Assembly (NCBI RefSeq): GCF_010728325.1
Contig: NZ_AP022570.1
Span: 2,728,001-2,792,000, forward strand
DNA length: 64,000 bases
Source: Mycolicibacterium poriferae
GTDB taxonomy: Bacteria; Actinomycetota; Actinomycetes; Mycobacteriales; Mycobacteriaceae
Direction of reading: 5' to 3'
In this document: in pieces, positions 12,921 through 49,714 of the stretch
Layout of the letters: each line of letters begins with the position of its first letter
Numbering within the stretch: the first letter of the stretch is position 1
Made by a program: the position numbers and the translations under genes
Notes under the pieces: generated by a model
Database searches by the model: none
Told to the model about the DNA's origin: nothing
The model's input: the letters and a program-made list of their open reading frames with translations, nothing else

Positions 12921-14839
12921 CCGTCGCCGACCGTGTCGACGTCAGCTACCCGTTCAGTGCGCTGGTCGGGCACGACCGCCTTCGGCTGGCGCTGGTGTTG
13001 TGCGCAGTGCGGCCCGACATCGGCGGAGTGCTGATCCGCGGCGAGAAGGGCACCGCGAAGTCGACCGCGGTTCGCGGGCTGGCGCAGGTGCTGACCATGG
13101 CTTTTCAGGCCTCCGGTGGCGGTCACCTGGTGGAGTTGCCGATCGGGGCGACCGAGGACCGGGTGATCGGCTCCCTCGACTTGCAGAAGGTGCTGCGCGA
13201 CGGTGAGCACGCCTTCTCGCCGGGCCTGCTGGCCCGTGCACACCGCGGTGTTCTCTACGTCGACGAGGTCAACCTGCTGCACGACCACCTCGTCGACATC
13301 CTGCTCGACGCCGCCGCCATGGGCCGGGTGCACATCGAACGCGACGGGGTCTCGCACAGTCATGAGGCCCGATTCGTGTTGATCGGCACCATGAATCCCG
13401 AAGAGGGGGAGTTGCGTCCACAGTTGCTGGACCGTTTCGGGCTCACCGTCGACGTCGCGGCCTCCCGCGATGTCGACGTGCGCACCGACGTGATCCGGCA
13501 GCGACTCGCGTTCGAAGCCGACCCGGCCGCCTTCGCCGCGAGGTATGCCGACGAGGATGCCGCGCTGGCCGCCCGCATCGCCGAAGCGCGGGCCCTGCTG
13601 GCAGAGGTGTCGTTGCCCGACAATGAGTTACGGCGCATCGCGGCGTTGTGTGCGGCGTTCGACGTCGACGGCATGCGCGCTGATCTCGTGGTCGCGCGAA
13701 CCGCGGTGGCGCACGCCGCGTGGCGCGGGGCCACCACCGTCGACGAGCAGGATATTCGCGTAGCCGCCGAACTGGCGTTGCCGCACCGCCGTCGCCGCGA
13801 TCCGTTCGACGACCCCGGTCTGGACCCCGAACGTCTCGACGATGCCATGCAGCAGGCCGCCGATGCCGCCGACGAGCAGCCCGAGCCTCCGCCGGACCCG
13901 CCGGGGGGTGGCCAGGACGCTGCTGAAGAGCAGAACGCCCAAGCGCCGCAACAGGATTCGTCCTCCTCGTCGCCGCCGTCGGAGTCGCAGCCCCGACCGA
14001 ACGGTGCGGGGGCGCCGCCACGCACGAGTGCTCCTCCGTCGGCGCAGTTCCGTACCCGCGCGCTGGTCGTGCCCGGGATCGGCGAGGGCGCGCCCGGTCG
14101 GCGCTCGCGCGCCAGAAACCGCACCGGCACGGTCGTGTCGGCGGCCACCGATTCCGGCGCCGGACACGGCGTGCATCTGTTCGCGACCGTGCAGGCCGCG
14201 GCGGGACGACAGACCGGGATCGGTCGACTGCGGGTGGTGCCCGACGATGTGCGCCGGGCGGTTCGGGAGGGGCGCGAGGGCAACCTGGTCATCTTCGTCG
14301 TGGACGCCTCGGGTTCGATGGCTGCCCGCGACCGGATGTCGGCGGTGGGAGGCGCGACGCTGTCGCTGCTCCGGGACGCCTACCAGCGACGGGACAAGGT
14401 CGCGGTCATCACGTTCCGCCAGCAGGATGCGCAGGTGGTGCTGCCTCCGACGTCGTCGGTGCACATCGCCAGCCGGCGGCTGGCACAGTTCCAGACCGGC
14501 GGGCGAACCCCGCTGGCGCAGGGCCTGCTCGCCGCCCGGGACATGGTGGTGCGGGAACGGGCCCGCGACCGGGCGCGGCGCAGCCTGGTGGTCGTGCTCA
14601 CCGACGGGCGTGCCACCGGTGGGGTCGACCCGCTCGACCGTGCCCGCGCCGCGGCGACCCGGCTGGTGGCCGAGGGGGCGGCGGCCGTCGTCGTGGACTG
14701 TGAGACATCCTTTGTCAGGTTGGGTTTGGCCGAAGACCTGGCCCGACACCTCGACGCTCCGGCGGTACGGCTGGATCAGCTGCGTGCCGACGATCTCTCC
14801 GTCCTGGTGAAATCTCAGGCCGGCCGGGGCGCCGCGTAG
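12917..14839 (+). CDS. Fused AAA+/VWA chelatase subunit (ChlI-ChlD type), probable cobaltochelatase partner
   Basis: 640 residues. The N-terminal AAA+ module has Walker [11 protein letters not shown] (41-50), Walker [12 protein letters not shown] and the sensor region [20 protein letters not shown] low-complexity Pro/Gln/Ser/acidic linker spans about 315-380. The C-terminal VWA domain has the MIDAS motif DASGSM (D463) and a matching TDGR. This fuses the roles of BchI and BchD. The homologue Rv2850c is annotated as magnesium chelatase. Mycobacteria lack chlorophyll and the gene abuts cobO-cobB, so work with CobN to insert cobalt into the corrin ring is the more likely job; that is inference. 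Confidence 0.85.
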
Positions 14840-14876
14840 AAGTTTCGGCGATGCCAGTGCGTAGAAAGGTGCGGCG

Positions 14877-15491
14877 ATGCCACAGGGTCAACCATTGGCT
14901 GTTCCCCGTGACGGATTGACGACGCGTCAGCGGCGCAACGCTCCACTGTTGGCCGTGCACACCGGCCCGGGGAAGGGGAAGTCGACGGCCGCGTTCGGAA
15001 TGGCGCTGCGCGCCTGGAATCAGGGCTTCGACATCGCGGTCTTCCAGTTCGTCAAGAGCGCGAAATGGAAGGTCGGCGAAGAGACCGCGCTGACCGAACT
15101 CGGTCGAGCGCATGAGGAACGCGGTGTCGGTGGTCCCGTCGAGTGGCACAAGATGGGCTCCGGATGGTCGTGGTCGCGCAAGGCGGGCACGGAGGATGAT
15201 CATGCCGCCGCGGCTGCGGAGGGTTGGGCCGAGATCGCCCGCCGACTCGCCGAGGAGCGGCACGACTTCTATGTGCTCGACGAGTTCACCTATCCACTGA
15301 AGTGGGGCTGGGTCGACGTCGACGAGGTGGTTGCCACGCTGGCCGAGCGTTCGGGCACCCAGCATGTGGTGATCACCGGCCGCGACGCACCGGCGGCGCT
15401 GCTCGATGCGGCGGATCTGGTGACCGAGATGACGAAGGTGAAGCATCCGATGGATGCGGGCCGCAAAGGCCAGAAAGGGATCGAGTGGTGA
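14877..15491 (+). CDS. cobO: Cob(I)yrinic acid a,c-diamide adenosyltransferase
   Basis: A 204-residue P-loop enzyme that transfers the adenosyl group from ATP to cobalt in the late cobalamin pathway. The CobA/CobO-type P-loop is TGPGKGKST (29-37), and FVLDEF-like YVLDEFTY and the C-terminal KHPMDAGRKGQKGIEW are diagnostic. The stop is embedded in the first unit of a 38-bp tandem repeat that bridges to cobB. It follows the chelatase gene by 37 nt with an AAAGG ribosome site. Confidence 0.95.
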   Translation: MPQGQPLAVPRDGLTTRQRRNAPLLAVHTGPGKGKSTAAFGMALRAWNQGFDIAVFQFVKSAKWKVGEETALTELGRAHEERGVGGPVEWHKMGSGWSWSRKAGTEDDHAAAAAEGWAEIARRLAEERHDFYVLDEFTYPLKWGWVDVDEVVATLAERSGTQHVVITGRDAPAALLDAADLVTEMTKVKHPMDAGRKGQKGIEW

Positions 15492-15609
15492 GCGCAGCGA
15501 ACCACGACAGACAGGCGGGCGAGTGGTGAGCGCAGCGAACCACGACAGACAGGCGGATGAGTGGTGAGCGCAGCGAACCACGACAGACAGGCAGGCGAGT
15601 GGTGAGCAC
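15483..15609 (+). repeat. MIRU-like 38-bp tandem repeat (3.3 copies) carrying three coupled mini-ORFs between cobO and cobB
   Basis: Units begin at 15483, 15521, 15559 and (partial) 15597. Each holds GAGTGGTGAGC, so the stop TGA of one frame overlaps the start GTG of the next. This produces three 13-residue ORFs: 15488-15529 (MSAANHDRQAGEW), 15526-15567 (G replaced by D) and 15564-15605. The first overlaps the cobO stop by GTGA and the last overlaps the cobB start by GTGA. Each unit also contains a GTGGT...ACCAC inverted repeat. This is the architecture described for mycobacterial interspersed repetitive units, whose small ORFs overlap both neighbours. Whether the peptides are made is unknown. 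Confidence 0.85.
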
Positions 15610-16972
15610 CCCGGCGGTCGTGATTGCCGCTCCCGCCTCGGGCAGCGGCAAGACCACGGTGGCGACCGGCCTGATGGGCGCGTTGCGCGCGGCCGGCCGC
15701 CGAGTGGCGCCGTTCAAGGTGGGGCCGGACTTCATCGACCCCGGCTATCACGGGCTGGCGTCGGGACGCCCCGGCCGCAACCTGGATCCGGTTCTCGTTG
15801 GCGACTCGTTGATCGGCCCGCTGTTCCGGCACGGCAGCGACGACGCCGACATCGCGGTCGTCGAGGGCGTCATGGGTCTGTTCGACGGCCGCATCAGTCC
15901 GACCGCCCCCGGTCCCGCCCACGGCTCCACGGCCCAGGTGGCCGCGATGCTCGGGGCTCCGGTGATCCTCGTCGTGGATGCCCGCGGACAGAGCCACAGC
16001 ATCGCCGCGCTGCTGCACGGCTTTGCGACCTTCGACCAGAGCGTGCGGTTGGCGGGGGTGATCCTCAACCGCGTCGGCTCGGCTCGCCACGACGAGGTGC
16101 TGCGCCAGGCGTGTGAACATGCCGGCGTACCGGTGCTGGGGTCCATCCCGCGGGCCGACGAGCTGACGGTGCCGTCCCGGCATCTGGGTCTGGTGACCGC
16201 GGTCGAGCACGGCAACCTGGCCGGCGCGGCAGTGGATGCGATGGCGGGACTGGTCGCTCGCCACGTCGATCTGGACGCGGTGGCCGCGGTGGCGGCCAGC
16301 GGCGTCGCCGCACCGCCGTGGGACGCGGCCGTGCACGAACCCGTTGCCGGCGGGGTGACCGTGGCCATGGCCGCGGGCAAGGCCTTCACATTCAACTATG
16401 CCGAGCACGTCGAGGTGTTGCGGGCCGCAGGCGCGACGGTCGTGGACTTCGACCCGCTGACCGATCCGCTGCCCAAGGCGACGGCGGCCCTGGTGCTGCC
16501 CGGCGGTTTTCCCGAACAGTTCGGCCCGCAGTTGTCGGCCAACGACATCGTCCGCTCCCAGATTCGGGCGCTGGCGGTGCGTGGGGCGCCGGTGCACGCC
16601 GAGTGCGCGGGCCTGACATACCTGGTCGACGACCTGGACGGGCAACCGATGTGCGGGGTGCTGGCGGGCTCTGCGACGTTCACCGACACGTTGACGCTGG
16701 GATACCGCGATGCTGTCGCGGTCGGTGACTCGCCGCTGCACCGCATCGGCGACCGGGTGGTCGGTCATGAATTCCATCGCACCGCGGTCCAGTTCACCGG
16801 AGACCGTCAGCCGGCGTGGCGGTTCGCCGGGCGCGGCGGCCACGTCGTCGACGACGGCGCTGTCCGCGCCGGCGTGCATGCGGGCTATCTGCACACCCAT
16901 CCAGCGGCCCATCCGGACGCCGTCGCCCGGTTCGTCTCCGCGGCGGCGGCAGCCTCTAGGCTCGCCGGGTGA
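15602..16972 (+). CDS. cobB: Cobyrinic acid a,c-diamide synthase (CobB/CbiA)
   Basis: A 456-residue glutamine-dependent amidotransferase that amidates cobyrinic acid or its hydrogenobyrinic form. The N-terminal P-loop is APASGSGKTT (10-19) in a dethiobiotin-synthase-like domain; the C-terminal GATase domain has the nucleophile in HAECAGLTYL and a late HTHPAAHP. I start it at GTG 15602 (VSTPAVVIAAPASG), because an earlier ATG in frame would read the repeat array as protein. Its TGA overlaps the cysG start. Confidence 0.94.
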   Translation: MSTPAVVIAAPASGSGKTTVATGLMGALRAAGRRVAPFKVGPDFIDPGYHGLASGRPGRNLDPVLVGDSLIGPLFRHGSDDADIAVVEGVMGLFDGRISPTAPGPAHGSTAQVAAMLGAPVILVVDARGQSHSIAALLHGFATFDQSVRLAGVILNRVGSARHDEVLRQACEHAGVPVLGSIPRADELTVPSRHLGLVTAVEHGNLAGAAVDAMAGLVARHVDLDAVAAVAASGVAAPPWDAAVHEPVAGGVTVAMAAGKAFTFNYAEHVEVLRAAGATVVDFDPLTDPLPKATAALVLPGGFPEQFGPQLSANDIVRSQIRALAVRGAPVHAECAGLTYLVDDLDGQPMCGVLAGSATFTDTLTLGYRDAVAVGDSPLHRIGDRVVGHEFHRTAVQFTGDRQPAWRFAGRGGHVVDDGAVRAGVHAGYLHTHPAAHPDAVARFVSAAAAASRLAG

Positions 16973-18204
16973 CCCCCGCCCACGTGAGGAGCGAAGCGAG
17001 CTCCGAGAACGCGTACCTGGTGGGTTTACGGCTCACCGGCAAGAAGGTCGTCATGGTCGGCGGCGGTACCGTCGCGCAGCGCCGGTTACCGCTTCTGGTC
17101 GCCAGCGGCGCGGACGTGCACGTCATCGCCATCTCCGCGACGCCCGCAGTCGAGGCCATCGACGGGATCACGCTGAACCTGCGGGAGTTCCGCACCGGCG
17201 ACCTCGACGGTGCCTGGTACGCCATCGCCGCGACCGACGACCCCGACGTCAACGCGGCCATCGTGGCCGAGGCCGAAGCCCGGCACATCTTCTGCGTCCG
17301 CGCCGACATCGCGCGCGAGGGCACGGCCGTCACCCCGGCCTCCTTCGAGTACGAGGGGCTGGCGGTGGGCGTGCTGGCCGGTGGGGAGCATCGGCGGTCG
17401 GCGGCGATCCGTTCGGCCATCCACGAAGCGCTACAGCAGGGTGTCATCGCCAGGGACGACTCGGTGACCCCCGGTGTGGTCCGCGGCGGTGTCGCACTGG
17501 TCGGTGGTGGCCCGGGCGACCCGGAGTTGGTGACTGTGCGCGGACGCCGGCTGTTGGCTCACGCCGATGTCGTGGTCGCCGACCGCCTCGCGCCGCAGGA
17601 ACTGCTGGCCGAATTGTCCCCGGACGTCGAGGTGATCGACGCGGCAAAGATCCCGTACGGCCGCTCGATGGCCCAGGACGCGATCAACAGCGTGCTCGTC
17701 GACCGCGCCAAGGAAGGCAAGTTCGTGGTGCGGCTCAAGGGCGGCGATCCGTTCGTCTTCGCGCGCGGCCAGGAAGAGATCATCGCGTGCGCCGAGGCCG
17801 GGATTCCGGTGACCGTGGTACCCGGTGTGACCAGCGCCATAGGGGTTCCTGCGCTTGCCGGGGTACCCGTCACGCACCGGGCGATGACGCACGAGTTCGT
17901 GGTGGTCAGCGGACATGTTGCGCCGGAGCACCCCGAATCGTTAGTGAATTGGGATGCATTGGCCGCGATGCGGGGCACAATCGTCTTGTTGATGGCTGTC
18001 GAGCGGATCGAACTGTTTGCCAGAGTCCTTCGGGAGGGGGGTCGTCCTGCTGATACCCCTGTTCTAGTGGTGCAACAGGGCACGACGTCTGCTGAACGAA
18101 CTTTGCGGGCGACGCTTGCCGATGCGCCGGAGAGAATCCGTGCCGAGGGCATCAGGCCGCCGGCGATCATCGTCATCGGGGCGGTGGCAGCGTTCGGCGC
18201 CTAA
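16969..18204 (+). CDS. cysG: Bifunctional siroheme synthase (precorrin-2 dehydrogenase / uroporphyrinogen-III methyltransferase)
   Basis: 411 residues. The N-terminal Rossmann domain has LVGLRLTGKKVVMVGGGTVAQRRL, shown by its core GGGTVAQRR, and performs NAD-dependent dehydrogenation and ferrochelation. The C-terminal SUMT domain starts near residue 170 with LVGGGPGDPELVTVRG and includes VVADRLAP, RLKGGDPFVFARG and PGVTSAIGVPALAGVPVTHR. The GTG start gives a GTGA overlap with cobB. The first 15 codons (HVRSEASSEN) come from a GTGAGGAGCGAAGCGAGC-type mycobacterial repeat, so the functional start could be slightly downstream. Products feed both siroheme and corrin synthesis. Confidence 0.93.
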   Translation: MTPAHVRSEASSENAYLVGLRLTGKKVVMVGGGTVAQRRLPLLVASGADVHVIAISATPAVEAIDGITLNLREFRTGDLDGAWYAIAATDDPDVNAAIVAEAEARHIFCVRADIAREGTAVTPASFEYEGLAVGVLAGGEHRRSAAIRSAIHEALQQGVIARDDSVTPGVVRGGVALVGGGPGDPELVTVRGRRLLAHADVVVADRLAPQELLAELSPDVEVIDAAKIPYGRSMAQDAINSVLVDRAKEGKFVVRLKGGDPFVFARGQEEIIACAEAGIPVTVVPGVTSAIGVPALAGVPVTHRAMTHEFVVVSGHVAPEHPESLVNWDALAAMRGTIVLLMAVERIELFARVLREGGRPADTPVLVVQQGTTSAERTLRATLADAPERIRAEGIRPPAIIVIGAVAAFGA

Positions 18205-18237: not shown

Positions 18238-19860
18238 ATGACGGCTCTCAACGATGCGGAGCGTGCCGCCATCCACCGTGATTCTGAAGGCGAAAACCAG
18301 CGAGGCTCGAGGCGAGCCGGTGACCGTGCGTTGCCGGACCGTGCGCCCACGCTGGGCGGGCAGGGTGCCGACACTCAACGACCTGGCAGGTCGCCGGCGG
18401 CGTGGCTGCCGTCGCGGCGCTTCATCGCTGCGGTCATCGCGATCGGCGGCATGCAGCTGCTGGCCACGATGGACAGCACCATCGCCATCGTCGCGCTCCC
18501 CAAGATCCAGGACGAGCTGAACCTCTCCGACGCCGGTCGAAGCTGGGTCATCACCGCCTACGTGCTGACGTTCGGCGGGTTGATGCTGCTCGGCGGGCGG
18601 CTCGGTGACACCATCGGCCGCAAGCGCACCTTCATCGTCGGCGTCACGCTGTTCACGATCGCGTCGGTGTTGTGCGGCATCGCCTGGGACGAGGCGACGC
18701 TGGTCATCGCCCGGCTGCTGCAGGGTGTGGGCGCCGCGATCGCCTCACCGACCGCGTTGGCGCTGATCGCGACCACCTTCCCCAAAGGGCCCGCCCGCAA
18801 TGCGGCCACCGCGGTGTTCGCCGCGATGACCGGTGTCGGCTCGGTGATGGGACTGGTTGTCGGCGGTGCGCTGACCGAGGTCTCGTGGCGGCTGGCGTTC
18901 CTGGTCAACGTGCCCATCGGCCTGCTGATGATCTACCTGGCCCGCAAGACGCTGCGGGAGACCAACCGCGAGCGTCTCAAGCTCGACGCCGCCGGCGCGC
19001 TGCTGGCCACGCTGGGATGTACCGCCGCGGTGTTCGGCTTCTCGATGGGGCCCGAGCAGGGCTGGTTGTCGCCGTTGACGCTGGGTTCCGGCGTGATCGC
19101 GGTGGCCGCGTTGGTGGGCTTCCTGATCGTCGAACGCACCGCGGAGAACCCGGTGGTGCCGTTCAGCCTGTTCCATGACCGCAACCGGGTGGCGACCTTC
19201 GCGGCCATCTTCCTGGCCGGCGGTGTCATGTTCACGCTGACAGTGCTGATCGGTCTGTACGTGCAGGACATCATGGGTTACAGCGCGCTGCGGGCGGGCA
19301 TCGGTTTCATCCCGTTCGTCATCGCACTCGGTATCGGCCTGGGGCTGTCCTCGGCGCTGGTGTCGAAGTTCCCCCCGCGTGTGTTGGTCATCGCCGGCGG
19401 CGTGCTCGTGCTCGGCGCGATGATCTACGGATCCACGCTCGACGCCGACATCCCGTACTTCCCGAACCTGGTCTTCCCGATCACGATCGGTGGACTCGGC
19501 ATCGGCATGATCGTGGTCCCGCTGATGATCTCGGCCATCGCCGGAGTCGGCTTCGACCAGATCGGTCCCGTGTCGGCGATCGCGCTGATGCTGCAGAACC
19601 TGGGTGGACCCGTCGTGCTCGCGATCATCCAGGCGGTCATCACCTCGCGCACCCTCTACCTCGGGGGCACCACCGGGCCGGTCAGTGACATGAACGCCGC
19701 CCAGCTGCACGCCCTCGATCAGGGCTACACCTACGGCCTGCTGTGGGTGGCCGCGGTCGCCGTCGTCGTCGGCGCCGCTGCGCTGTTCATCGGCTACACG
19801 GCTCAGCAGGTGGCGCATGCGCAGGAAGTCAAGGACGCGATCGACGCCGGAGAGCTTTAG
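18238..19860 (+). CDS. efpA: EfpA, QacA-type (14-TMS) MFS efflux transporter
   Basis: A 540-residue major facilitator with a cytoplasmic N-terminal tail of about 55 polar residues and about 14 predicted membrane helices. Motif A is GGRLGDTIGRKRTF, the motif D1-like region is MDSTIAIVALPKIQ, and the antiporter motif C is recognisable around GVGSVMGLVVGGAL. EfpA exports drugs and is essential-like in M. tuberculosis (Rv2846c), where it also sits between cysG and proS. The last codons GAG CTT TAG lie inside the first unit of a 28-bp tandem repeat. Confidence 0.95.
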   Translation: MTALNDAERAAIHRDSEGENQRGSRRAGDRALPDRAPTLGGQGADTQRPGRSPAAWLPSRRFIAAVIAIGGMQLLATMDSTIAIVALPKIQDELNLSDAGRSWVITAYVLTFGGLMLLGGRLGDTIGRKRTFIVGVTLFTIASVLCGIAWDEATLVIARLLQGVGAAIASPTALALIATTFPKGPARNAATAVFAAMTGVGSVMGLVVGGALTEVSWRLAFLVNVPIGLLMIYLARKTLRETNRERLKLDAAGALLATLGCTAAVFGFSMGPEQGWLSPLTLGSGVIAVAALVGFLIVERTAENPVVPFSLFHDRNRVATFAAIFLAGGVMFTLTVLIGLYVQDIMGYSALRAGIGFIPFVIALGIGLGLSSALVSKFPPRVLVIAGGVLVLGAMIYGSTLDADIPYFPNLVFPITIGGLGIGMIVVPLMISAIAGVGFDQIGPVSAIALMLQNLGGPVVLAIIQAVITSRTLYLGGTTGPVSDMNAAQLHALDQGYTYGLLWVAAVAVVVGAAALFIGYTAQQVAHAQEVKDAIDAGEL

Positions 19861-20022
19861 CTCGACATTGGGCTGGGGAGAGCTTTAGCTCGACATTGGG
19901 CTGGGGAGAGCTTTAGCTCGACATTGGGCTGGGGAGAGCTTTAGCTCGACATTGGGCTGGGGAGAGCTTTAGCTCGACATTGGGCTGGGGAGAGCTTTAG
20001 CTCGACGTTGGGCTGGGGAGAG
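19850..20022 (+). repeat. 28-bp tandem repeat, about six copies, between efpA and proS
   Basis: Units beginning CTCGACATTGGGCTGGGG recur at 19861, 19889, 19917, 19945, 19973 and 20001; only the last has a G for A change. The first unit includes the efpA codons for Glu-Leu-stop, and TAG is then repeated in every unit. Because 28 is not a multiple of 3 the stops fall in all three frames. Each unit contains GAGCTTTAGCTC, a 5-bp inverted repeat. The copies are nearly identical and directly abutting, so this is recent slippage rather than a spacer array. Confidence 0.9.
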
Positions 20023-20052
20023 CTCCGGCCCCCACCAGTAAGGTGGTCGCTC

Positions 20053-47360: not shown

Positions 47361-48335
47361 GTGCAGCGCTGGCGAGGCCAGGGGGAGATCCCGACCGACT
47401 GGGGCCGATGTGTGGTGACCATCGGCGTCTTCGACGGTGTCCACCGCGGGCATCAGGAGCTGATCGGTCGTGCGGTCAAAGCCGGCCGGTCGCGCGGCGT
47501 GCCCACGGTGTTGATGACCTTCGACCCGCACCCGATGGAGGTCGTCTTTCCGGGCAGCCACCCGGCGCAACTGACCACGCTGACGCGTCGCGCCGAGCTG
47601 GTCGAGGAGATGGGCATCGACGTGTTCCTGGTCATGCCGTTCACTTCGGACTTCATGAAACTCACCCCCGAGCGCTACGTCCACGAACTGCTCGTCGAAC
47701 GCCTCCACGCCGTCGAGGTCGTGGTCGGCGAGAACTTCACGTTCGGCAAGAAGGCGGCGGGCAACGTCGAGTTGCTGCGCAAGGCGGGCGAACGGTTCGG
47801 CTTCGCCGTGGACTCGGTGAACCTGGTGGCCGAACATCACCGCGACGAGACGGTGACGTTCTCGTCGACCTACATCCGCTCGTGCGTGGATGCCGGTGAC
47901 ATGGTCACCGCGGCGGAGGCACTGGGCCGTCCACACCGGGTGGAGGGTGTCGTGGTGCGCGGCGACGGTAGGGGCAAGGTGCTGGGCTTCCCGACGGCCA
48001 ACGTCGCCCCGCCGATGTACTCGGCGATCCCCGCCGACGGTGTCTACGCCGCGTGGTTCACCGTGCTCGGACATGGCCCGGTGGTCGGCAGCGTCACCCC
48101 GGGGGAGCGCTACCAGGCCGCCGTCTCGGTCGGCACCAACCCGACGTTCTCCGGACGCACCCGCACCGTCGAGGCGTTCATCCTGGACACGACCGCCGAC
48201 CTGTACGGCCAACACGTCGCGGTCGACTTCGTGGCCCGGCTGCGCGGCCAGGAGAGGTTCGACTCGGTGGACGATCTGGTGGCGGCGATGGGTGCCGACA
48301 CCGAACGCGCACGCACCATCCTCTCCGCCCACTGA
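47361..48335 (+). CDS. ribF: Bifunctional riboflavin kinase/FMN adenylyltransferase
   Basis: 324 residues making FMN and FAD. The N-terminal FAD-synthetase domain has GVFDGVHRGHQEL and TFSSTYIRSCV; the C-terminal flavokinase domain has GRPHRVEGVVVRGDGRG, LGFPTANV and SVGTNPTF. GTG at 47361 (MQRWRGQGEIPTDWGRC) matches the M. tuberculosis start; a TTG two codons earlier is less likely. A 25-bp tandem array follows 3 nt after the stop. Confidence 0.95.
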   Translation: MQRWRGQGEIPTDWGRCVVTIGVFDGVHRGHQELIGRAVKAGRSRGVPTVLMTFDPHPMEVVFPGSHPAQLTTLTRRAELVEEMGIDVFLVMPFTSDFMKLTPERYVHELLVERLHAVEVVVGENFTFGKKAAGNVELLRKAGERFGFAVDSVNLVAEHHRDETVTFSSTYIRSCVDAGDMVTAAEALGRPHRVEGVVVRGDGRGKVLGFPTANVAPPMYSAIPADGVYAAWFTVLGHGPVVGSVTPGERYQAAVSVGTNPTFSGRTRTVEAFILDTTADLYGQHVAVDFVARLRGQERFDSVDDLVAAMGADTERARTILSAH

Positions 48336-48338
48336 CTG

Positions 48339-48476
48339 GCGGCCCGCCGCGGTGTCTGTCTGCGCGGCCCGCCGCGGGGTCTGTCTGCGCGGCCCGCCGC
48401 GGGGTTTGATTCGCGGCCCGCCGCGGTGTCTGTCTGCGCGGCCCGCCGCGGTGTCTGTCTGCGCGGCCCGCCGCGG
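48339..48476 (+). repeat. 25-bp GC-rich tandem repeat, six copies, between ribF and rpsO
   Basis: Units starting GCGGCCCGCCGCGG recur at 48339, 48364, 48389, 48413, 48438 and 48463, the third being 24 bp with a variant TTTGATTC tail. Each unit has the inverted repeat GCGG-CCCG-CCGC. The tail TGTCTGTC is the complement of GACAGACA in the cobO-cobB repeat, so the two arrays may share ancestry. It lies upstream of the rpsO promoter and may end ribF transcription. Confidence 0.85.
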
Positions 48477-48504
48477 TCGATTCGGTGGCGCCGCAACTCG
48501 CTGC

Positions 48505-49411: not shown

Positions 49412-49714
49412 ACCGGAGGGATTAGGGGTTTGCGGTGTACCGGGATGTACCATGGGTGCGTTCGGCTGCCGCAGGCGCGAACAACCGGGTGCGGTCCTCG
49501 CAGATCCGCAGGGATCGTTCCCGCGTGACACGACAGGAACCGCCCGATCGCGCGGTCTTCGGTAGTGGCTGCCGGAGAGAACTCCGGCCGCTTCGATCGA
49601 CGGCCGTCGACGCATCTGGGCTGGGGCTGCTCCGGGTTGACCCGGAGGCGGGACTTCGCGCGTGCCCACGCAAAACAGGTGAATGATGACCCCAGAGAGG
49701 CCGTACGGACGTTT
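49412..49714 (+). promoter_or_regulatory. pnp leader region with two mutually exclusive hairpins
   Basis: No gene is supported in these 303 nt. Two strong stems are present: GCCGGAG-AGAA-CTCCGGC (49571-49588) and CTCCGGGT-TG-ACCCGGAG (49630-49647). Their arms share CCGGAG/CTCCGG, so the 3' arm of the first can also pair with the 3' arm of the second. PNPase is autoregulated through its leader in other bacteria. A similar mechanism here is inference. Confidence 0.45.

What the first reader, a model, noticed from the sequence alone, without database searches (positions are those of the whole stretch)
15483..15609. Chain of three 13-residue ORFs translationally linked by GTGA overlaps from cobO to cobB
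The 38-bp unit encodes MSAANHDRQAGEW, and its stop overlaps the start of the next unit. cobO feeds the first and the third feeds cobB. A 38-bp period is exactly what keeps a 42-nt ORF with a 4-nt overlap in register, so ribosomes could pass along the whole chain. Copy number could then tune coupling between cobO and cobB. This is MIRU-like architecture, here inside a cobalamin operon.
Basis: partly seen in the sequence, partly recalled or inferred. Interest (0 to 1): 0.75.

Follow-up and report, generated by a model that had tools for sequence, protein, structure and literature searches.

The report
Ribosome relay between two B12 genes
Three tiny overlapping reading frames sit between two vitamin B12 genes of a mycobacterium, and comparison with related bacteria suggests they serve as stepping stones that hand ribosomes from the first gene to the second, whatever short peptides they encode.

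Summary
Three 38-bp units (15488-15601) lie between cobO and cobB. Each carries a 13-codon GTG ORF whose TGA overlaps the next GTG; cobO's stop opens the chain and the third ORF ends on cobB's GTG. Units 1 and 3 encode MSAANHDRQAGEW, unit 2 MSAANHDRQADEW.
I compared 188 distinct cobO-cobB junctions: 70 direct overlaps, 118 with inserts. In 102 of 118 an ORF chain opening at cobO's stop ends exactly (-4) on a cobB start, in 115 within 13 nt; frame-randomised shuffles give about 35 and 44 of 116. In 31 of 42 path-disjoint contrasts insert lengths differ by a multiple of 3, 14 expected. The chlD-cobO junction shows no significant phase bias, and spaced gene pairs in about 0.86 Mb of the own genome show exact one-ORF relays in 12 of 56.
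Best reading: a MIRU-like translational relay, kept by selection on frame, not peptide. It is not shown to be a MIRU: in the own genome the unit was found only here. Unit number differs between species (1, 3, at least 4), but tuning by copy number is untested. Translation was not measured.

The parts
14877..15491 (+). cobO, corrinoid adenosyltransferase; its last W codon and TGA give GTGA, the entry of the relay
   Evidence: sequence; NCBIfam TIGR00708 and NF004637, both above cut-off
15488..15529 (+). relay ORF 1, MSAANHDRQAGEW, GTG start overlaps cobO stop
15526..15567 (+). relay ORF 2, MSAANHDRQADEW
15564..15605 (+). relay ORF 3, MSAANHDRQAGEW, TGA overlaps cobB GTG
15488..15601 (+). three tandem 38-bp units
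   Evidence: array of the same length in L033/L114
15602..16972 (+). cobB, cobyrinic/hydrogenobyrinic acid a,c-diamide synthase; GTG start in the context VSTPAVVIAAP
   Evidence: NF002204, TIGR00379 above cut-off
16969..18204 (+). next gene (uroporphyrinogen-III C-methyltransferase domain, siroheme synthase-like), joined to cobB by a -4 GTGA overlap

Best explanation
The array is a translational relay. In many relatives cobO and cobB overlap directly by GTGA, so a ribosome that ends cobO can restart at once on cobB. Here the overlap was opened by a 38-bp insert, now present as three tandem copies. Every copy begins and ends with GTGA, so a ribosome ending cobO can restart on ORF1, end, restart on ORF2, then ORF3, then cobB. 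Selection keeps the frame and the terminal overlap, not the peptide. SHOWN (sequence): the chain, its relatives with 1, 3 and at least 4 units, and the phase and openness of unrelated inserts at the same junction. INFERRED: that ribosomes really terminate and reinitiate at each GTGA, that cobB depends on this, and that the selection is for cobB output.
For: Of 118 distinct inserts, an ORF chain entered at cobO's stop (-4, or -7 where the stop is TAG/TAA) ends exactly on a cobB start in 102 and within 13 nt in 115; frame-randomised dinucleotide shuffles give 35.5 and 43.5 of 116. Of the 99 inserts entered by GTGA, 89 hit exactly (79 by one ORF, 5 by two, 5 by three) and 83 have spacer phase 1 mod 3. 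Path-disjoint tree contrasts: length difference is a multiple of 3 in 31 of 42 (binomial P 9.6e-8 against 1/3), 21 of 27 among pairs within 0.3. Inserts form 37 homology clusters; 31 of 37 are mostly exact relays, and 24 of 30 singletons. The longest exact GTGA-entered relay spans about 300 nt (L091). Controls: chlD-to-cobO phases 30/27/19 in 76 of 80 loci (chi-square P 0.28); exact one-ORF relays in 12 of 56 spaced NTGA gene pairs of the own genome, against 79 of 99 one-ORF relays here. Published: in E. coli and Haloferax, spacings of about 20 nt nearly abolish reinitiation (PMC10666635, abstract and passages); AUGA termination-reinitiation from a uORF of an M. tuberculosis gene was demonstrated in M. 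smegmatis reporters (PMC11260477, passages).
Against: No expression data. cobB starts were assigned by rule (in-frame start codons upstream of the P-loop), which allows several candidates per junction. 69 of 118 inserts fall in one homology cluster, so plain counts overstate independence; six inserts were too short to cluster, so some singletons may be related. Unit junctions have no significant Shine-Dalgarno-like pairing, and hairpins at the unit starts are not clearly stronger than shuffles (z 0.07 to -1.79; in the best case 9 of 200 shuffles fold as well). Three inserts break the relay (L063, L165, L243) and 8 of 19 inserts behind a TAG/TAA stop have phase 0, so it is not indispensable everywhere. 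With insert length kept, shuffles already give 59 of 99 exact hits, so openness adds less than phase. A tandem copy of a GTGA-bounded unit keeps the chain automatically, so copies 2 and 3 alone prove no selection.
Confidence: 0.8

Rival explanations
1. The ORFs are kept only to cover the spacer with ribosomes and prevent Rho-dependent polarity; cobB initiates on its own.
For: Inserts stay open over up to about 300 nt. cobB's upstream region pairs with the anti-SD at -9.2 kcal/mol, though this is no better than shuffles.
Against: An ORF in any frame, even one running into cobB, would serve, yet the end lies exactly on a cobB start in 102 of 118 and phase is 1 mod 3 in 83 of 99 GTGA-entered inserts.
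Confidence: 0.1
2. Neutral tandem repeat; chain and phase are accidents of high-GC sequence.
For: In GC-rich DNA stops are rare and TGA after G, A or T is common; shuffles reach about 30% exact ends with phase randomised and about 60% with length kept.
Against: 102 of 118 against about 35 of 116; 31 of 42 contrasts; no significant bias at chlD-cobO.
Confidence: 0.04
3. CobB is made with an N-terminal extension through unit 3, from the in-frame ATG at 15557.
For: The frame is open from ATG 15557. Two inserts in other genomes (L109, L077) do read as in-frame extensions from cobO's stop.
Against: The ATG is absent from the sister L033; the two CobB models above cut-off match from residues 4 and 6 counted from GTG 15602.
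Confidence: 0.04
4. The 13-residue peptide has a function of its own.
For: VSAANHD is shared by the units of the window, L033, L117, L118 and L119.
Against: Other species keep unrelated peptides at the same place; in those five the DNA of this stretch is unchanged as well, so the peptide is not singled out.
Confidence: 0.02

Closest known systems
MIRU (mycobacterial interspersed repetitive units, senX3-regX3; Supply 1997, paper itself not seen; described in PMC12548453 and PMC4213456, passages)
   Same: Tandem intercistronic repeats in a mycobacterial operon, three copies in senX3-regX3 of H37Rv (PMC4213456); [quoted passage not shown]
   Different: 38 bp against 77 or 53 bp; other operon; one locus in the own genome instead of many; no sequence comparison with MIRU was made.
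-4 nt termination-reinitiation gene pairs (PMC10666635, abstract and passages)
   Same: Each junction is a -4 overlap, the commonest spacing of unidirectional gene pairs there.
   Different: Here several consecutive overlaps over mini-ORFs bridge a 114-bp insert; the published tests are in E. coli and Haloferax.
uPPE2-ppe2 relay of M. tuberculosis (PMC11260477, passages)
   Same: Short ORF with an AUGA overlap passes ribosomes to the next gene in a B12-related operon, shown with reporters in M. smegmatis.
   Different: Single uORF behind a riboswitch, not between two genes and not tandem; Rfam at gathering scores found no riboswitch in this window.
rnc-fpg1 MIRU-VNTR of M. tuberculosis (PMC2734929, abstract and passages)
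   Same: Intercistronic tandem repeats; longer arrays went with higher downstream mRNA.
   Different: Effect measured on mRNA; no relay in the passages seen.

Membership tests
MIRU | Repeat lies between co-directional genes of an operon | tested here: met
   (co-direction and -4 overlaps; co-transcription not tested)
MIRU | Repeat carries an ORF overlapping the neighbouring stop and start by 4 nt | tested here: met
MIRU | Interspersed at many loci of the genome (41 in H37Rv per PMC2734929) | tested here: not met
   Own genome: one place. With the window's array as query at E up to 0.05, 6 of 9 genomes show only the cobO-cobB place, G184 that place plus a second 21-base match, G288 only a weak match elsewhere, G187 none, so diverged units can be missed. 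With the 20-base core at up to 2 mismatches, 8 of 9 show only cobO-cobB; G288 has one match elsewhere
MIRU | Copy number variable between strains | tested here: inconclusive
   Between species: 1 (L117, L118, L119, L048, L036), 3 (window, L033), 3 of 35/35/32 bp (L116), at least 4 (L115, array runs to the contig end). Within a species: no strains available
MIRU | Sequence homology to the 77/53-bp MIRU | not tested
   no MIRU sequence was fetched
-4 nt termination-reinitiation pair | NTGA stop/start overlap | tested here: met
   all four junctions are GTGA
-4 nt termination-reinitiation pair | Downstream translation depends on upstream translation | not testable with these tools
   needs reporters or ribosome profiling

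The most novel reading that the evidence does not exclude
The cobO-cobB junction is a site where inserted DNA is kept only if it reads as a ribosome relay: ORFs selected purely as conveyors. GTGA-bounded tandem units form a dial whose copy number sets the CobO:CobB ratio, with the same unit type recurring in scattered lineages by exchange of the junction.
Probability: 0.2. Interest if true: 0.8.

Novelty: new variant of a known kind. Interest (0 to 1): 0.62.

Why it matters
That the ORF of an intercistronic repeat may serve only to carry ribosomes onward has been put forward for MIRUs (PMC12548453, passages, citing Supply 1997). The cobO-cobB junction offers over a hundred natural inserts as replicates, and they point to selection on reading phase and end point while the peptide is free. 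That makes 'ORF as conveyor' a testable class, and warns that conserved short ORFs in operon gaps need not encode functional peptides. The series of 1, 3 and at least 4 units is a ready set for measuring the cost of each termination-reinitiation step.

Tried and rejected
Shine-Dalgarno-like pairing and hairpins at unit starts: not clearly better than shuffles, dropped. Dispersal of the unit as a mobile element: not seen. Genome-wide relay excess: modest (exact one-ORF ends 12 of 56 against 9 and 6 in shifted frames; ends within 12 nt 29 against 17 and 12, home-made gene caller), so no general claim is made. Single origin of the unit: the trees do not group the carriers (some nodes weakly supported); left open. 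The first script's cobO-end finder picked wrong stops for many loci and was replaced. One search failed to find its anchor in L115 (wrong strand); read instead.

Rows dropped: 2 of 221 loci had no recognisable cobO end (L115, L221) and 7 no cobB P-loop; 212 junctions became 188 after removing identical ones. L077 and L109 (in-frame extensions, spacer over 32) were counted as direct. In one search two short inserts had no shuffle null. In one search, 4 of 80 loci gave no upstream ORF. In one search, 52 distinct junctions of the 111 loci offered could be read. In one search, 187 of the 188 junctions were in the tree.

Literature: the listings of searches (open-licence PMC only; seven searches) showed no paper on the cobO-cobB junction; the one mycobacterial cobamide review found (PMC12713380, passages only, 12 of 15 places shown) does not mention it there. 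PMC8092293 (Salmonella intergenic small ORF): abstract and outline only.

Full report
OBSERVATION. The array is as described. cobO ends GAG TGG TGA at 15491; GTG at 15488 opens ORF1, which ends in TGA at 15529; GTG at 15526 opens ORF2 (to 15567); GTG at 15564 opens ORF3 (to 15605); GTG at 15602 opens cobB. The period is 38 bp, each ORF 42 nt including the stop. Units 1 and 3 encode MSAANHDRQAGEW, unit 2 MSAANHDRQADEW. NCBIfam supports a corrinoid adenosyltransferase (cobO, name recalled) and CobB, after a chelatase gene (best match 'putative cobaltochelatase', 753.9 bits against a cut-off of 779.45; called chlD here) and before a siroheme synthase-like gene. In the own genome the array is one place; two 16-base matches lie on contig 2.

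RELATIVES OF THE UNIT. The sister L033 (Mycobacterium sp. PO1; the same junction in G328/L114) has three identical units; against it the window differs at 29 of 615 positions in cobO, 4 of 137 in the array plus cobB N-terminus, and 63 of 1300 in cobB. Single units of the same kind stand at the same junction in L118, L119 and L048 (38 bp), L117 (a 42-nt ORF ending in TAG, cobB start at -7) and L036 (35 bp). L116 has three units of 35, 35 and 32 bp (VNGVNATEGWEW, VNAVNATEGWEW, VNGVNATEGGA). L115 has at least four 38-bp units, cut by the contig end. On a 97-tip tree of cobO and cobB proteins the nine carriers are scattered through a clade of 56 tips, among species with direct overlap or other inserts; some nodes are weak. 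Whether this is an old insert often lost or a junction exchanged between lineages is not resolved.

THE JUNCTION ACROSS GENOMES. From 80 named cobO loci, 30 loci of a genus-wide search in which 378 of 396 genomes matched and 110 further stretches, the cobO stop could be found in 219 of 221 (window included) and the cobB P-loop in 212; 188 are distinct. The genus stretches were taken from the upper part of a list ranked by DNA similarity to the window, so the sample leans to near relatives. Seventy are direct overlaps (62 GTGA, 8 GTAG/GTAA). The other 118 have inserts.

RELAY TEST. Starting at cobO's stop (GTG at -4, or at -7 if the stop is TAG or TAA), I read the ORF to its stop and, if that stop is NTGA with a start codon, read on. 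The chain ends with a -4 overlap on a cobB start in 102 of 118 and within 13 nt in 115; exceptions are L063, L165 and L243. When the insert is dinucleotide-shuffled and its length phase randomised, 35.5 and 43.5 of 116 are expected. Counting only GTGA entry, 89 of 99 hit exactly: 79 by one ORF, 5 by two, 5 by three; with length kept, shuffles give 59.4 of 99. Phase is 1 mod 3 in 83 of these 99, and in 9 of the 19 with a TAG/TAA stop, where 8 have phase 0 (Fisher P 0.0013, not corrected for relatedness).

INDEPENDENCE. Inserts fall into 37 homology clusters, one with 69 members; 31 of 37 clusters are mostly exact relays and 24 of 30 singletons are; six inserts were too short to cluster. On the nucleotide tree, 42 path-disjoint pairs of GTGA-entered inserts differ in length; in 31 the difference is a multiple of 3, against 14 expected; among pairs within 0.3, 21 of 27. 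Of the 11 exceptions, five pair chains with different numbers of ORFs and six include a junction that is not an exact relay. Pairs involving a TAG/TAA stop: 5 of 12.

CONTROLS. At the chlD-cobO junction, phases are 30, 27 and 19 in 76 of 80 loci (chi-square P 0.28); for spacers over 10 nt 28, 17 and 15 (P 0.086): no significant bias. In 0.8 Mb of the own genome plus the window, of 500 co-directional pairs 204 have an NTGA stop, 121 of these overlap directly, and of 56 with spacers of 15-330 nt, 12 show an exact one-ORF relay against 9 and 6 for shifted frames; ends within 12 nt are 29 against 17 and 12 (simple gene caller). So relays elsewhere are at most modestly enriched, and cobO-cobB (79 one-ORF relays of 99) stands out. 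At cobB-cysG, 33 of 52 readable junctions are direct; 13 of the other 19 have a stop without NTGA, so no -4 entry; of the six entered by NTGA, four are exact relays (one ORF in L047, two in L078, four in L065 and L060), one ends 9 nt before the start (L126) and one overlaps it by 11 nt (L043).

MECHANISM. Published work in E. coli and Haloferax says that a spacer of about 20 nt nearly abolishes reinitiation (PMC10666635, abstract and passages), so a plain 114-bp insert should uncouple cobB. The chain of -4 overlaps restores contact at each step. That AUGA overlaps work mainly by termination-reinitiation has been shown for an M. tuberculosis uORF in M. smegmatis reporters (PMC11260477, passages). 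Because a GTGA-bounded unit is self-propagating, tandem gain or loss never breaks the relay; this would explain how copy number can drift between 1 and at least 4. Whether each step loses ribosomes, so that copy number sets the CobO:CobB ratio, is not known. SD-like pairing (-8.6 to -9.4 kcal/mol, anti-SD recalled) and hairpins at the unit starts do not clearly exceed shuffles.

COMPARISON. It works like a MIRU as described in PMC12548453 (passages) and in PMC4213456 (passages: three 77-bp MIRUs in senX3-regX3 of H37Rv). It fails the interspersed feature in the own genome, and homology to MIRU was not tested. Verdict: new variant of a known kind, a tandem relay in a cobalamin operon, with comparative evidence for selection on frame and end point.

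Noticed in passing
window 19849-20024: 28-bp unit repeated 6.3 times (99% matches), beginning in the last codons and TAG of the ORF 18238-19860; perhaps another variable-copy array.
   Followed up: no
window 48332-48477: GC-rich tandem repeats of about 25 bp with GCGGCCCGCCGCGG stretches.
   Followed up: no
window 49551-49608: Actino-pnp RNA (RF01688), the only Rfam match of the window at gathering scores.
   Followed up: no
window 14834-14882: Imperfect 26-bp duplication between the chlD stop and the cobO start; the spacer is 37 nt here and 13 nt in L033.
   Followed up: partly
window 15557: Unit 2's two-base change creates an ATG in frame with cobB, a possible N-terminal extension absent from the sister L033.
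   Followed up: partly
L047, L060, L065, L078 (and L043, inexact): cobB-cysG junction: The next junction of the operon also holds relay ORFs, some in tandem.
   Followed up: partly
cobO-cobB inserts of 69 loci: One homologous cluster of inserts, many about 100 bp with inverted CGAGCGTGCG/CGCACGCTCG ends, perhaps a dispersed mycobacterial repeat that reads as a relay here; dispersal not tested.
   Followed up: no
tree: The 38/35-bp unit type recurs in scattered lineages at this one junction; L142, next to L117, has an unrelated insert instead.
   Followed up: partly
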